The position numbers and the translations under genes are program-made. From Yeosuana aromativorans (lineage in GTDB: Bacteria; Bacteroidota; Bacteroidia; Flavobacteriales; Flavobacteriaceae): DNA of 64,000 nucleotides. The notes beneath the pieces were generated by a model. The model was not told the DNA's origin. It worked only from the letters and a program-made list of their open reading frames with translations, and searched no databases. Position 1 is the stretch's first letter, and every line of letters begins with the position of its first letter. Positions 13,353-57,160 of the stretch are shown here, one piece after another. The stretch covers positions 124,001 through 188,000 of the forward strand of contig NZ_BMNR01000006.1 of the NCBI RefSeq assembly GCF_014646655.1. Direction: 5' to 3'.

Positions 13353-14813
13353 CTAAAATTTAAATCCAATTCCTGTATAAACACCTATAAAATAGGGTTT
13401 GAAATTACCGGATGTATTGTTAAATGTGTTGATTTGATATTTGAACATAGGTTCAAGGTTCAATTCAAACTTTTTTGTCATTTTATAGTTCAAGCCTAAA
13501 CCAAAATTGGCGCTATAACTAACCTTATTTAGGTTTGTGGCTTCTCCAATAAGTGTTCGTTGACTCCCAAATTCAGAATACAACTTGTTGCTGTTTAAAA
13601 AGAAGGAACTAAATCCACCAATAACATTAACTCCAAGTTTTTTATTGATGACGGCATATTCAATTTCTAAAGGAATTTCAATATATCCCAATGATTGATT
13701 GATTGAGGTGTTGGATGTTTTAATAAAGGATTCATTGTTGCTGTTGGTGCGTAAGCTTTCTCCACTTACTATTGAAATGTTTTCAGAAGCGTCGCTTGCG
13801 TTCACATTTTTCAACAAGCTAGAACTGCTAATGCCTACGGTTTCAAAAACAACCACATCATTGGTGTTATAGCCTAGATTAACTTTGTTAATACCAGAGC
13901 GTACTTTTAAGTTTTTAGTAACGGCATAGCTAGCTGTAACGCCATAGCTCATGTTCACTTCTCCACTTTTAGAGTTGCTGTTAAATTGAGAATCAATAGA
14001 AGATCCCTTTCCAAGACTATTGAAATATACAGGCGCCGCATTAGGAGCTATACTCCATTTATCTTGAATCTTTTCCTTTTCAATGGTTTTTGTTTCAGCG
14101 ATGGCGTCTTCTATAGTAAGTGTTTTATGTTTTGAATCTGTAATAGTTGTTACCGAATCTATAGCCTCATTATTTACCTTGGCAATTGTAGTTTTGTTAT
14201 TATTTAAAACTGTGCTTTTTTCTTGGGTTTTATCAAGATCATTGTTAGATTGAACAACAGTAGATTTGTTTTTTTCTTTTTCTTCAGAAAGAGTGGTAGC
14301 TATTGCATCATTAATTCCCAAAGGATTTTGAATGACCTCTAGGGTTTTTCCTTTTTTGGAATTTGAAAGGGTTGCCTTTGTTTCTGACGGATTATTTGCA
14401 ATTACAGATGCAGGAGATTCAATGACCGTATTTTGTGGTGTTTGGTTGCTTTTGTTAGACTCTAAACTACTACTATCATCATTATTGGCATCTGTTGCTT
14501 GATTGGGTTTGTCAAAATCATTTGTACTATTGGATTTTGATGGCTCAACAACCTCTTTTTTTGTGTCCACAACTTGATTTGTTGGAACGGTGCTAGTGTT
14601 GTTACTGTTAAAATACAGGTCACCAATGGTTAAAAACAACAATAATAGTGCAGCAACGCCAGCATAACGCCACCAAATAGGGATGACTCTGCGTTTGTTT
14701 TTCTTTTGGTTTAATTGCGACTCAATGTTTTTCCAAACAGCATCACTAGGAGTTGCTTCAAAATCCTTGAAGCGTTCCTGGAACAGTCTATCTATGTTTT
14801 TTTTCTCTTTCAT
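13353..14813 (-). CDS. Membrane-anchored protein: anti-sigma-like N-terminus, linker, outer-membrane beta-barrel
   Basis: 486 residues in three parts. Residues 1-45 are charged and cytoplasmic in type (LFQERFKDFEATPSDAVW), a start often seen in proteins encoded next to Bacteroidota ECF sigma factors. A single membrane helix follows (about 50-68, YAGVAALLLLFLTIGDLYF). Residues 70-255 are a low-complexity Ser/Asn/Thr/Lys linker, and residues 255-486 alternate polar and hydrophobic residues ending in GIGFKF, typical of an 8-strand-type outer-membrane barrel. Its ATG overlaps the sigma gene stop (ATGA). I infer it senses the envelope and holds the sigma factor; binding is not shown by sequence. 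Confidence 0.75.
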   Translation of the reverse strand: MKEKKNIDRLFQERFKDFEATPSDAVWKNIESQLNQKKNKRRVIPIWWRYAGVAALLLLFLTIGDLYFNSNNTSTVPTNQVVDTKKEVVEPSKSNSTNDFDKPNQATDANNDDSSSLESNKSNQTPQNTVIESPASVIANNPSETKATLSNSKKGKTLEVIQNPLGINDAIATTLSEEKEKNKSTVVQSNNDLDKTQEKSTVLNNNKTTIAKVNNEAIDSVTTITDSKHKTLTIEDAIAETKTIEKEKIQDKWSIAPNAAPVYFNSLGKGSSIDSQFNSNSKSGEVNMSYGVTASYAVTKNLKVRSGINKVNLGYNTNDVVVFETVGISSSSLLKNVNASDASENISIVSGESLRTNSNNESFIKTSNTSINQSLGYIEIPLEIEYAVINKKLGVNVIGGFSSFFLNSNKLYSEFGSQRTLIGEATNLNKVSYSANFGLGLNYKMTKKFELNLEPMFKYQINTFNNTSGNFKPYFIGVYTGIGFKF

Positions 14814-15364
14814 TGTAACGATTGTAAACGTCGTGTTGTTTTATAATCCTCAATGGTTGTTTTCAATATCTGTCTAGCACGTGCTAGATTGGACTTTGAG
14901 GTTCCTATAGTAATATCTAGCATCTCTGCGATGTCTTTATGTGAATATCCATCCAAAACATATAGGTTAAAAACCAATCTGTATCGGTCTGGTAATTCTT
15001 GAATAATTTGCAACAGATAATTAATTGAAATATCATCTTCATCAATTTCTATTGCAACATCTTCTGTTATATCTTCATTTACAATGTCAAAAACCTTTTC
15101 ATTTCGGTATCGTTGTAAAACCGTATTAACGGTAATTCGTTTTAACCAGCCTTCAAAAGAGCCTTTGTATTTGTATTGTTCAATTTTTTTAAATATGGTT
15201 AAGAACGCATCCTGCAGATTGTCTTCTGCTTCGGCATAATTTCTTGAATACTTTAAGCTAATCGAAAATAGTTTACTCGAAAAGAGCTTGTATAGTTCGC
15301 TTTGAGCTTGCGTATCATTAATTTTACAATTTTCTATGAGTTCTTCTAAACCCAAATTAAACAC
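14810..15364 (-). CDS. ECF-type RNA polymerase sigma factor
   Basis: 184 residues. Region 2 spans about 20-95 (ELYKLFSSKLFSISLKYSRN, DNLQDAFLTIFKKI, GWLKRITVNTVLQRYR) and region 4 spans about 120-180 (LPDRYRLVFNLYVLDGYSHK, EMLDITIGTSKSNLARAR, a helix-turn-helix binding -35 DNA). Regions 1 and 3 are absent, as in ECF sigmas. It lies 19 bases after a lipoprotein gene and overlaps the downstream membrane/barrel gene by four bases, so the three form one unit. A two-part promoter-like motif sits upstream of the lipoprotein gene and suggests autoregulation. Confidence 0.92.
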   Translation of the reverse strand: MFNLGLEELIENCKINDTQAQSELYKLFSSKLFSISLKYSRNYAEAEDNLQDAFLTIFKKIEQYKYKGSFEGWLKRITVNTVLQRYRNEKVFDIVNEDITEDVAIEIDEDDISINYLLQIIQELPDRYRLVFNLYVLDGYSHKDIAEMLDITIGTSKSNLARARQILKTTIEDYKTTRRLQSLQ

Positions 15365-15383: not shown

Positions 15384-15803
15384 TTAGTTTGTCACAGGCA
15401 CTTCAATGGTTAAGTACTGGTCATCACCATTTTCATCAGTTCCTTGCCAAAATTTAAATACATAGCTGCCATTACTTGTTACTACAAAGTTAAAGGTTGC
15501 TTCTGTCAATTCATCTTGAAGGTCAGTACAATTTGGGTTGTCAGCAACATAATTTATGACCGCAACAGTACGCTCATTATTATTTTTTAGATAGTAAAAC
15601 TCTTTGAAAGAATAACAGGTTGATGGTGTAAAATAATGCACGGTTATAGGATATGTTTCTCCTAAAGTAAACGTATCGGGCATGTCAACACTTTCAATGG
15701 GTAATACATCTAAGGAATAACCATCATAACTTGAACCATTATCACTAATACTACAAGACACCAATAAAATTAGTGTTAAACTAAGAATAATTAATCGTTT
15801 CAT
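15384..15803 (-). CDS. Predicted lipoprotein, first gene of the ECF sigma operon
   Basis: 139 residues with a lipoprotein signal ending LLVSC at about residue 17. The mature part looks all-beta (FTLGETYPITVHYFTP; TSNGSYVFKFW) and has two further cysteines near residues 62 and 91 that could form a disulphide. I recognise no named family. It is upstream of and on the same strand as the sigma gene, 19 bases away. A GCAACCT-N13-GCATCTA motif lies 31 bases before its ATG. A role as an envelope stress target or signal input is inference from position. Confidence 0.75.
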   Translation of the reverse strand: MKRLIILSLTLILLVSCSISDNGSSYDGYSLDVLPIESVDMPDTFTLGETYPITVHYFTPSTCYSFKEFYYLKNNNERTVAVINYVADNPNCTDLQDELTEATFNFVVTSNGSYVFKFWQGTDENGDDQYLTIEVPVTN

Positions 15804-15833: not shown

Positions 15834-15860
15834 TAGATGCGAAGAGGTTTAAAAGGTTGC
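15834..15860 (-). promoter_or_regulatory. Putative ECF promoter of the lipoprotein-sigma-barrel operon
   Basis: On the minus strand GCAACCT (15860-15854) is followed after exactly 13 bases by GCATCTA (15840-15834). The ATG is 31 bases further on. The same two words with the same spacing occur at 16978-17004 and 57147-57121. Word lengths and spacing fit -35/-10 of an ECF sigma factor, and there is no TAnnTTTG box nearby. Confidence 0.6.
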
Positions 15861-15870
15861 GTACTAAAAC

Positions 15871-16908: not shown

Positions 16909-16977
16909 CTAAATGTTTATTTCTGAAATTATTCATGCTAAAATAATACTTCTTTTGTCACAATACAATTTTATCAC

Positions 16978-17004
16978 GCAACCTTTTTGTTCTTTTTGCA
17001 TCTA
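16978..17004 (+). promoter_or_regulatory. Putative ECF promoter facing away from recA
   Basis: GCAACCT (16978-16984), 13 bases, GCATCTA (16998-17004) on the plus strand, the same motif and spacing as at 15860-15834 and 57147-57121. The 16 bases from GCATCTA onward differ by only one base from those at the 57121 copy. No gene starts within the next 110 bases; a terminator ends the unit at 17114. Confidence 0.55.
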
Positions 17005-17009
17005 CTAAA

Positions 17010-17114
17010 TAAACTGGGAAAAATTTTGCTATGAAATTTAACAGAATAACATTTTAAGCTGACTAACTCAAACTGTTTGAAAAAGCGCTTTACATTTTGT
17101 AAAGTGCTTTTTTT
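17010..17114 (+). ncRNA. Orphan transcription unit of about 105 nt: small RNA or scar of a lost lipoprotein gene
   Basis: The unit runs from just after the ECF-type motif to a strong terminator. Its only ATG (17031) gives the peptide MKFNRITF and a stop. That start resembles the first residues of a lipoprotein signal peptide, as in the two lipoprotein genes under the same motif, so the unit may be what remains after internal deletion. Equally, promoter plus terminator around about 100 nt is the layout of a small RNA. The 5' end is estimated from promoter geometry and not known. Confidence 0.4.
17084..17114 (+). terminator. Strong terminator with no annotated gene upstream
   Basis: Eleven-base stem 17084-17094 with 17098-17108 (one G-U pair), three-base loop, seven Ts to 17114. 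recA runs the other way, so on the plus strand this terminator can only serve the orphan unit starting near 17010. Confidence 0.85.
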
Positions 17115-17121
17115 ATGAGAT

Positions 17122-17154
17122 TTTGCCTTGGTTTTTCAAAAAACTGTACCTTTG
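17122..17154 (+). promoter_or_regulatory. Promoter of the trhO operon
   Basis: TTTG at 17122-17125 and TACCTTTG at 17147-17154, 21 bases apart, match the Bacteroidota -33/-7 consensus. The trhO ATG is 40 bases downstream. The box begins eight bases after the orphan-unit terminator. Confidence 0.65.
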
Positions 17155-17194
17155 CCGTTTAAATATTTCTTTAACCTTAAAACATTGGTATAGC

Positions 17195-18268
17195 ATGCAA
17201 CTGTACAATAAATTAAGTGCAAAAGAAAGGGCAGAATTAATCGATCAAGCAGGAAAAAATCGATTGACACTTTCTTTTTATCAATATGCCAAAATTGGCA
17301 ATCCACAAGTTTTTCGGGATCACTTGTTCATTACTTGGAATGCCTTGGATGTTCTGGGCAGAATTTATGTGGCTCATGAAGGCATTAACGCCCAACTATC
17401 ATTACCGGCAGACCGCTTTAATGAATTTAAGGAACACCTTGACAGTATTGACTTTTTAAAAGGTGTTCGTTTGAATATTGCCATTGAGCAAGACAATAAA
17501 TCATTCTTAAAGCTAAAAATTAAGGTACGCGATAAAATTGTTGCCGATGGTTTGAATGATGAGACGTTTGATGTCACTAATAAAGGCATTCATCTAGCTG
17601 CAGAACAATTCAATAATCTTATTGAAGACGAAAAAACGATATTGGTTGATATGCGTAACCATTATGAAAGTGAGATTGGACATTTTAAAAATGCCATCAC
17701 ACCCGATGTGGATACGTTTCGGGATTCGTTGGATATTATTGAAGAAGATTTAAAAGACCATAAAGAGGACAAAAACTTGGTGATGTATTGTACAGGTGGT
17801 ATTCGTTGCGAAAAGGCCAGTGCCTATTTTAAGCACAAAGGGTTTAAAAATGTGTACCAACTGGAAGGCGGTATTGTTGAATACACCAGACAAGTCAAAG
17901 AGAAGAACTTAGAAAACAAATTTTTAGGACAGAATTTTGTGTTTGATGACCGACGGGCAGAACGCATTAGCGATGATGTTATAGCACAATGCCACCAGTG
18001 TGGAGCACCGTTTGATGTGCACACCAATTGCGCTAATGATGCCTGTCATTTATTGTTTATTCAGTGCGATAAGTGTAAGGAGGAAATGAATAACTGCTGT
18101 TCAACAAACTGTAAAGAAATACATGCATTGCCGTATGAAGAGCAAAAAGCATTGCGAAAAGGGCAAGGTAATAGCAATGATATTTTCAAAAAGGGACGTG
18201 CCGATCATTTGCCATATAAAAAGGATTTAAGAAATATTTTTGAGACATTAAAAGTCAATAAACAATAG
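17195..18268 (+). CDS. trhO: tRNA uridine(34) hydroxylase (rhodanese-type)
   Basis: 357 residues from the ATG at 17195. An N-terminal ferredoxin-like domain (about 20-110) is followed by a rhodanese domain (about 140-240) with the loop CTGGIRC, whose first Cys is the expected active residue, and a Cys-rich tail (CHQCGAPFD, CDKCKEEMNNCC). This is the TrhO/YceA family, which uses oxygen to make 5-hydroxyuridine at tRNA position 34. A TTG at 17123 in frame would lie within the promoter -33 box and is rejected. A U32 protein and a ferredoxin follow within eight bases and an overlap. Confidence 0.92.
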   Translation: MQLYNKLSAKERAELIDQAGKNRLTLSFYQYAKIGNPQVFRDHLFITWNALDVLGRIYVAHEGINAQLSLPADRFNEFKEHLDSIDFLKGVRLNIAIEQDNKSFLKLKIKVRDKIVADGLNDETFDVTNKGIHLAAEQFNNLIEDEKTILVDMRNHYESEIGHFKNAITPDVDTFRDSLDIIEEDLKDHKEDKNLVMYCTGGIRCEKASAYFKHKGFKNVYQLEGGIVEYTRQVKEKNLENKFLGQNFVFDDRRAERISDDVIAQCHQCGAPFDVHTNCANDACHLLFIQCDKCKEEMNNCCSTNCKEIHALPYEEQKALRKGQGNSNDIFKKGRADHLPYKKDLRNIFETLKVNKQ

Positions 18269-56712: not shown

Positions 56713-57102
56713 TTAATAAATGGCTACACAGGTGTTATTTTCACAGGTTGTACTCACTGGTGGATTTACCATTGCACAATCTGAAACAATACCCCATTTC
56801 TGGTTGTAAGCGGCCTCTTTTTTATTATAATTGGCCACTAACGTTTTTAGATTGGCTTCATCTATTGATGTAGAATATATTAAATAACTCCAAGGCCCAC
56901 CACAAGGTTTGCTGCCAAAAGCTATGAACTTGCATTCGGTGTTTTCGTTACAAACAGAAGTAGATGCTAAATCTTCTATACTTTGCTTAAGACCTGTTAA
57001 TTCTTGTTGATCTTCTTCAAAAGTTGAGTCTATGTTGTCCTCACATTGAAAGGCTACTAAGGATAAACATAAAGTAAATAGTAAAATAAGTGTTTTTTTC
57101 AT
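56713..57102 (-). CDS. Cys-rich predicted lipoprotein under an ECF-type promoter
   Basis: 129 residues with a lipoprotein signal ending AFQC (about residue 20), then EDNID. The mature part carries six further cysteines (near 52, 58, 68, 109, 120 and 125) in a pattern suited to disulphides. No family was recognised. A GCAACCT-N13-GCATCTA motif lies 19 bases before the ATG, the same as at the sigma operon, so it is a candidate member of that regulon. Confidence 0.75.
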   Translation of the reverse strand: MKKTLILLFTLCLSLVAFQCEDNIDSTFEEDQQELTGLKQSIEDLASTSVCNENTECKFIAFGSKPCGGPWSYLIYSTSIDEANLKTLVANYNKKEAAYNQKWGIVSDCAMVNPPVSTTCENNTCVAIY

Positions 57103-57120: not shown

Positions 57121-57147
57121 TAGATGCTTGAAAGCTTTATAGGTTGC
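57121..57147 (-). promoter_or_regulatory. Putative ECF promoter of the Cys-rich lipoprotein
   Basis: On the minus strand GCAACCT (57147-57141), exactly 13 bases, GCATCTA (57127-57121). The ATG is 19 bases downstream. Third copy of the motif at 15834-15860 and 16978-17004. Confidence 0.6.
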
Positions 57148-57160
57148 GTAACTAAAATAA

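What the first reader, a model, noticed from the sequence alone, without database searches (positions are those of the whole stretch)
15834..15860. Three copies of a two-part motif GCAACCT-N13-GCATCTA: a probable ECF sigma regulon signature
The words GCAACCT and GCATCTA occur three times with an identical 13-base gap (15860-15834 minus, 16978-17004 plus, 57147-57121 minus). Two copies lie 19 and 31 bases before lipoprotein ATGs, and one of those heads the operon for the ECF sigma factor at 14810-15364. All three lack the TAnnTTTG box and are short-spaced, as ECF promoters are. Seen directly: the motif and its positions. Inferred: that the local sigma factor reads it and controls its own operon, the Cys-rich lipoprotein at 56713 and the orphan unit at 17010.
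Basis: partly seen in the sequence, partly recalled or inferred. Interest (0 to 1): 0.75.

Follow-up and report, generated by a model that had tools for sequence, protein, structure and literature searches.

The report
Envelope-stress sigma factor promoter and regulon
The repeated DNA motif is very probably the switch read by a stress-response sigma factor of Flavobacteriaceae, turning on its own genes, many lipoproteins, tiny membrane peptides and an undescribed short RNA beside recA.

Summary
Relatives give an out-of-sample test. The extended form ACGCAACCTTTT-N11-CATCTA has 134 sites in 60 genomes against 15 for the reversed pattern; 132 of the 134 lie in the 34 genomes with the sigma ortholog. 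It lies upstream of the sigma gene in 78 of 80 named loci. Away from those operons it precedes lipoproteins at 49 of 85 sites, against 1 of 15 reversed-pattern controls, and a 28-29-aa membrane peptide in all 7 genomes of the genus. The partner protein has the layout of a Dma dual-membrane anti-sigma factor. So this is very probably the promoter of a Das/Dma-type ECF regulon.
The "orphan unit" at 17010 is the most novel part: a short unit divergent from recA, kept in 61 of 77 loci. In 36 of those 61 it encodes a ~30-aa peptide, usually ending CxxDGG, with a hairpin over the stop codon. In the window's genus the ORF is lost, but promoter, 5' element and terminator remain. I found it in none of the papers seen. 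No TSS or expression data.

The parts
15834..15862 (-). ECF promoter P1 (ACGCAACCTTTT-N11-CATCTA) of the lipoprotein-sigma-anti-sigma operon
   Evidence: Exact match; a site upstream of the sigma gene in 78 of 80 named loci with <=3 of 18 mismatches
15384..15803 (-). Lipoprotein, first gene of the sigma operon; predicted all-beta
   Evidence: Cys17 invariant in 41 aligned homologs; model pLDDT 90.9; no Pfam family in the window copy; no PDB match at E<=0.001
14810..15364 (-). ECF sigma factor that probably reads the motif
   Evidence: Sigma-70 r2 and r4 domains; orthologs of >=59% identity in 33 of 60 genomes, own included, and 80 named loci (best 80 kept of more)
13353..14813 (-). Dma-like anti-sigma: cytoplasmic helices, one TM helix (46-69), disordered tether (72-230), C-terminal barrel with about eight long strands (253-485)
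   Evidence: Model, mean pLDDT 67, barrel mostly above 90; OmpA, NspA and OmpW among best PDB matches; one hydrophobic segment, median start 50, in 75 of 75 full-length homologs, 74 ending in Phe; one short copy (L276) left out
16976..17004 (+). ECF promoter P2, divergent from recA
   Evidence: Exact match; present with <=2 mismatches in 61 of 77 named loci on the far side of recA
17010..17115 (+). Short unit of about 100 nt; here probably non-coding (8-codon ATG ORF only, its ATG not conserved in relatives)
   Evidence: Relatives; no Rfam family in the window at gathering cut-offs; peptide profile finds nothing significant in the own genome (best E 0.24)
17014..17037 (+). Conserved 5' element with GCTATG 23 nt after CATCTA
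   Evidence: GCT[AG]T at 21-24 nt after the site in 49 of 61 units, reading GCTATG, GCTATC, GCTATT or GCTGTG
17080..17114 (+). Rho-independent terminator of the short unit
   Evidence: Fold of the segment before the T-run -15.5 kcal/mol; not listed by the simple scan
17147..17154 (+). Sigma-A box TACCTTTG of the next gene (UPF0176/rhodanese, trhO-like, 17195-18268), lying after the terminator
   Evidence: Read; TAnnTTTG within 120 nt of the gene start in 58 of 58 loci; Pfam
57121..57149 (-). ECF promoter P3
   Evidence: Exact to the 14-base core; 2 mismatches to the extended form
56713..57102 (-). Cys-rich lipoprotein under P3
   Evidence: Relatives with CxxxxxCxxIxxGSKxCGGPW behind the motif in G001, G002, G004, G006, G012, G023 and G025

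Best explanation
The motif is the -35/-10 promoter of an autoregulated ECF sigma factor of the Das/Dma type. Shown by sequence: the sigma gene lies behind a lipoprotein gene and before a protein built like a Dma dual-membrane anti-sigma factor; the motif heads this operon; the same motif, with strongly preferred spacing, heads lipoprotein genes, a 28-29-aa membrane peptide gene and a short RNA unit across the family. Inferred: in unstressed cells the N-terminal part of the Dma-like protein holds the sigma factor; a disturbance sensed through its outer-membrane barrel or long tether frees it; it reads ACGCAACCTTTT-N11-CATCTA, raises its own operon, and changes the outer-membrane lipoprotein set. 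The divergent unit beside recA is a sigma-dependent short RNA. In many genera it also encodes a ~30-aa peptide whose stop codon lies in a hairpin; in the window's genus only the RNA remains.
For: Three exact copies, no fourth in the genome. 134 sites in 60 genomes against 15 for the reversed pattern; 37 exact against 0. 132 of 134 in the 34 genomes with the ortholog, counting G001, whose contig ends in the lipoprotein gene. Site upstream of sigma in 78 of 80 named loci, Dma-like gene in 80 of 80, recA in 78 of 80, first lipoprotein in 76 of 80. Paralogous sigma loci: 0 of 7. Lipoprotein ATG within 160 nt at 49 of 85 other sites (10 of 13 exact ones), against 1 of 15 reversed-pattern and 2 of 22 spacing-12 sites; median 21 nt from CATCTA to ATG. 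An upstream T-tract and the G of GCATCTA are conserved though not in the search pattern. Dma architecture modelled. Divergent site in 61 of 77 loci; peptide in 36 of 61, median dN/dS 0.22; hairpin z<-2 in 36 of 36.
Against: No transcription start, expression or binding data. 36 of 85 other sites have no lipoprotein call; 27 of 85 overlap an ORF of 80 or more codons on some strand (14 of 15 for the reversed control), and several 2-mismatch sites (L184, L361, L362, L363, L365) lie inside genes and look like chance. One of the 49 lipoprotein calls (L179) is the CxxDGG peptide at the sigma locus's divergent site, so 48 of 84 is the cleaner figure. The spacing-12 set is not a clean control: at least three of its 22 sites head regulon-type genes. 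My lipoprotein rule is hand-written and fires on 7 of 57 long window ORFs. Near-invariance inside the motif is partly by construction, since sites were picked at <=3 mismatches. Signal and anti-sigma function are inferred from architecture. The F. psychrophilum TSS study reports an ECF motif with a CGT box (SM6), which is not this motif.
Confidence: 0.88

Rival explanations
1. The motif is a binding site of another regulator (activator, repressor, or a different sigma factor of the genome), and the link to the local sigma gene is co-location.
For: No binding data; the genome holds at least three further ECF genes at 32-34% identity.
Against: Presence follows the ortholog across genomes (132 of 134 sites); paralog loci lack it (0 of 7); two-part non-palindromic layout, short distance to ATG and an AAC-type -35 box (recalled ECF feature) fit an ECF promoter; no sigma-A box within 40 nt of the three sites.
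Confidence: 0.08
2. The short unit at 17010 is only the 5' leader (attenuator) of the downstream trhO-like gene, not an independent RNA.
For: The gene lies downstream in the same direction in 58 of 61 loci; in peptide-bearing loci a small ORF, a hairpin over its stop codon and a terminator lie between, as in classical leader-peptide attenuation.
Against: The gene has its own sigma-A box within 120 nt in 58 of 58 loci; in the window this box lies after the unit's terminator; the gap reaches 2123 nt in L304 and about 1 kb in L318; the peptide is lost in the window's genus while the promoter is kept.
Confidence: 0.2
3. In the window's genus the unit is a decaying remnant of the peptide gene with no function left.
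For: No intact peptide ORF in the seven genomes of the genus, and broken or absent in many Winogradskyella, with recognisable remnants in some loci.
Against: Promoter intact (0-1 mismatch to the 14-base core) in all seven genomes of the genus, 5' element and terminator kept; but retention was not tested against a neutral rate.
Confidence: 0.25

Closest known systems
[quoted passage not shown]
   Same: Sigma gene beside an anti-sigma with N-terminal domain, one TM helix, disordered tether and C-terminal beta-barrel; NigD1 among the targets of Dma1/Das1 (passages of PMC13088901)
   Different: Flavobacteriaceae branch with its own -35/-10 sequence, recA-linked operon headed by a lipoprotein without a NigD match, and a divergent short RNA/peptide unit; none of these appears in the passages seen
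Envelope-stress sigma/anti-sigma pair of Phocaeicola vulgatus (BcpT response)
   Same: Anti-sigma predicted to span the periplasm with an outer-membrane barrel; three NigD orthologs induced by BcpT (passages of PMC9308784)
   Different: No promoter motif or RNA unit in the passages seen
F. psychrophilum SM6 ECF promoters
   Same: ECF-type promoters in the same family, with an ECF/anti-sigma pair and a putative regulatory RNA (Rfp11) among targets (PMC9723704 sections 15 and 20)
   Different: SM6 has a CGT box at -10 and T9SS parts among its genes; this motif has GCATCTA and mostly lipoproteins
Sigma-E-dependent small RNAs (RybB/MicA type; recalled)
   Same: Short RNA with its own terminator from an envelope-stress sigma promoter
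   Different: No targets tested; in many genera the RNA also encodes a conserved peptide and has a hairpin over the stop codon

Membership tests
ECF (group 4) sigma factors | Only sigma-70 regions 2 and 4 | tested here: met
   PF04542 and PF08281 hits, 183 aa
ECF (group 4) sigma factors | Autoregulated operon with two-part short-spaced promoter | tested here: inconclusive
   Site upstream of the sigma gene in 78 of 80 loci; autoregulation itself not measured
ECF21 / Das subfamily | Placement in the ECF21 group by sequence | not tested
   No ECF21 model or Das1/Das2 sequence was compared; in NCBIfam the 25 families shown of 88 reach the cut-off only for the sigma70-ECF superfamily
[quoted passage not shown]
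   homolog found in 80 of 80 loci
[quoted passage not shown]
   Needs binding or deletion data
Sigma-dependent regulatory small RNA | Own sigma-specific promoter and terminator, discrete transcript | tested here: inconclusive
   Promoter and terminator seen; the transcript itself was not observed
Sigma-dependent regulatory small RNA | Base-pairs with target mRNAs | not tested
   No target search was made
Leader-peptide attenuator of trhO | Gene depends on read-through of the leader | tested here: inconclusive
   Own sigma-A box before the gene in 58 of 58 loci argues against, gene order argues for
NigD-like lipoproteins (operon's first gene) | NigD-like Pfam domains | tested here: not met
   No NigD family among the 14 families matched at E<=1 by 24 members

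The most novel reading that the evidence does not exclude
The divergent unit is a new kind of dual-function stress RNA. An envelope-stress sigma factor drives a short transcript that both acts as an RNA and encodes a ~30-aa peptide ending CxxDGG, and the stop codon lies in a structured hairpin, so that termination on the peptide (perhaps slow at Gly-Gly-stop) controls the RNA's fold. In the window's genus and in many Winogradskyella the peptide has been shed and the RNA function alone is kept.
Probability: 0.35. Interest if true: 0.8.

Novelty: new variant of a known kind. Interest (0 to 1): 0.62.

Why it matters
I saw no promoter motif for a Das/Dma-type sigma factor in the papers listed or read here (the main Dma1 paper was not held). 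A well-conserved 18-base motif lets the regulon be read from Flavobacteriaceae genomes that carry the ortholog. It ties a two-membrane sensor to a shift in lipoproteins, which would bear on vesicle formation and outer-membrane stress in this family. It also uncovers a conserved short RNA/peptide gene beside recA and a 28-29-aa membrane peptide, neither matching a Pfam or NCBIfam family at its cut-off; both are directly testable.

Tried and rejected
Tested and set aside: the orphan unit as an ordinary ORF (its ATG reads ATA, ATC, ATT or GTG in some relatives); a known RNA family (none at Rfam gathering cut-offs in the window; seven matches below cut-offs, E 0.0015-0.91, in ten relatives, of which by my reading two, in L090 and L091, overlap the 3' end of the unit on the opposite strand); a NigD-type first gene; the CxxDGG peptide as a mini-lipoprotein (my rule fires on L179, but the residue at -3 is usually Asn, so it is not claimed). 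Loose matches (14-base core, 2 mismatches) in the own genome are mostly inside genes. The spacing-12 search was my slip in counting N; I kept it as a control and later found real-looking sites in it. A first trhO query was one base out of frame; redone in frame, the counts were the same. Pair counts on alignment A4 were not used as a covariation test because bulged stems are misaligned there; single-sequence folds were used instead, with segments cut at the conserved right arm, which favours finding the hairpin. Literature searches: (listings and starts of abstracts). Seen in more depth: sections of PMC9723704, passages of PMC13088901, PMC12045153, PMC9308784 and PMC12596196. None of these showed the motif; the 12 papers listed for GCAACC were not opened. 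Supplements could not be read.

Full report
Observation. Because the pattern was picked after the fact, I tested it in other genomes.

Test in relatives. With at most one mismatch, the 14-base core has 114 sites in 60 genomes (own included) against 21 for the reversed pattern, with a match in 41 of 60 (my sums). Many come in pairs about 1.1-1.2 kb apart on opposite strands. These flank recA: one heads the sigma operon, the other points away on recA's far side. Sites at the sigma locus showed a longer consensus, ACGCAACCTTTT-N11-CATCTA. With at most two mismatches this has 134 sites in the 60 genomes, 37 of them exact (my sums). Read backwards it has 15, none exact. Genomes with the sigma ortholog (33, plus G001, whose contig ends in the lipoprotein gene) hold 132 of the 134; the other 26 hold 2.

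Sigma locus. A search with an alignment of orthologs returned 80 named loci, the best of 582, from Algibacter, Flavivirga, Winogradskyella, Gelidibacter, Lacinutrix, Aquimarina, Kordia, Flavobacterium and others. In 78 of 80 the best site within 1.1 kb upstream of the sigma gene has at most 3 of 18 mismatches (0: 19, 1: 41, 2: 12, 3: 6); the misses are L326 (4) and L296 (7; only 265 nt upstream held). A homolog of the window's 486-aa barrel protein was found in 80 of 80, the first-gene lipoprotein in 76, recA in 78. In 78 sites aligned, CAAC and ATC are invariant, partly because sites were chosen by the pattern; a T-tract upstream (79-86% T at three positions) and the G of GCATCTA (79%) were not in the pattern. 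Seven paralogous sigma loci (47-56% identity) showed no site upstream of sigma.

Partner protein. The model of the window protein has N-terminal helices, a TM helix at 46-69, a stretch with pLDDT under 50 at 72-230 and a barrel of about eight long strands from 253 (mean pLDDT 67; barrel mostly above 90). Its best PDB matches include OmpA, NspA and OmpW. All 75 full-length homologs have one hydrophobic segment (median start 50); 74 end in Phe. This is the four-part layout given for Dma proteins in PMC13088901 (passages). Inhibition of the sigma factor is inferred.

Regulon. Of the 134 sites, 3 are further own-genome sites, 45 are at sigma loci, and 86 others were fetched; one (L360) was not found again, leaving 85. 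A lipoprotein ATG follows within 160 nt at 49 of 85 (exact sites 10 of 13, one mismatch 12 of 18, two 27 of 54), against 1 of 15 reversed-pattern and 2 of 22 spacing-12 sites. The background by the same rule is 7 of 57 long window ORFs. One of the 49, L179, is really the CxxDGG peptide at the divergent site of G025, so 48 of 84 is cleaner. 27 of the 85 overlap an ORF of 80 or more codons on some strand, against 14 of 15 reversed and 15 of 22 spacing-12 sites. The median distance from CATCTA to ATG is 21 nt. Recurrent targets: the Cys-rich lipoprotein of 56713; a lipoprotein with WNLVNVSGG-like sequence; a 28-29-aa membrane peptide ending VNKKTEP. The last is behind the motif in all seven genomes of the genus, in G004 with spacing 12. 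The spacing-12 set thus contains a few real-looking sites (L127, L131, L133), so the spacing is strongly preferred rather than absolute. Own-genome regulon candidates: the three window sites, L004, L006, L010 and L131.

The unit at 17010. P2 drives a stretch that ends about 110 nt later in a Rho-independent terminator. Its 8-codon ORF is not conserved. The site is kept in 61 of the 77 named loci where the far side of recA could be searched; two more have it with spacing 12 (L281, L307). In 49 of 61 units GCT[AG]T lies 21-24 nt after CATCTA. In 36 of 61 units there is an ORF of 23-30 codons ending in C (F in two) xx[D/E]G[G/R], typically MKFFKK..NALGVS..V.VNGNCKADGG. Pairwise dN/dS has a median of 0.22 in 142 non-independent pairs of copies 75-99% identical. 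A profile finds it with E under 1e-11 in 8 of 60 genomes, each time in this unit; the next best E is 0.011 and the own genome's best is 0.24. Pfam and NCBIfam gave no match at a cut-off. A hairpin starts in the last codon, contains the stop codon, and folds better than shuffles in 36 of 36 (median z -5.0). Different sequences keep the pairing: CCGTGG/CCACGG in Flavivirga L256, CATTG/CAATG in Kordia L318 and L325, against CTCGT/ACGAG in most. The window's genus and many Winogradskyella lack an intact ORF but keep the promoter, and as a rule the 5' element and a terminator.

Is it a leader of the next gene? The next gene is a UPF0176/rhodanese protein (the name trhO is recalled). It lies downstream in 58 of 61 loci, but has its own sigma-A box within 120 nt in 58 of 58, and the gap grows to 2123 nt in one locus. 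I therefore favour an independent short RNA, with attenuation as a live rival.

Literature. The F. psychrophilum transcriptome paper (PMC9723704; sections 15 and 20 read) reports an ECF motif with a CGT box, not this one; its supplements could not be read. PMC13088901 and PMC9308784 (passages) describe Dma-type pairs in Bacteroidales. PMC12045153 (passages) reports more outer-membrane lipoproteins on TamL depletion in F. johnsoniae, which would fit such a regulon but does not test it. PMC12596196 (passages) gives other B. thetaiotaomicron ECF motifs.

Noticed in passing
L006, L133, L174, L181, L227, L231, L234, L239, L241: A 28-29-aa membrane peptide ending VNKKTEP (VNKRTDP in L181) sits behind the motif in all seven genomes of the genus and in G023 and G025; no Pfam or NCBIfam match for the L227 copy.
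   Followed up: partly
36 divergent units among L256-L329: Conserved ~30-aa peptide usually ending CxxDGG with a hairpin over its stop codon, lost or broken in some genera.
   Followed up: partly
L191 and L210: Large signal-peptide proteins with TTDLAVVVEAQN-like sequence behind the motif in two genera; possible non-lipoprotein regulon members.
   Followed up: no
L219 and L246: Same glycosyltransferase-like protein behind a 1-2-mismatch site with AATCTA in two genera (G017, G007); may hint at an envelope-glycan branch of the regulon.
   Followed up: no
window 17190-17200: The start region TATAGCATG of the trhO-like gene is well conserved and could pair for about 7 bases with TGCTATG of the short RNA; probably chance, not tested.
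   Followed up: no
G000:C4:5043-5070 (L131): Own-genome site with spacing 12 before a lipoprotein whose look-alikes in other genomes (L223, L224, L237, L242) have spacing 13.
   Followed up: partly
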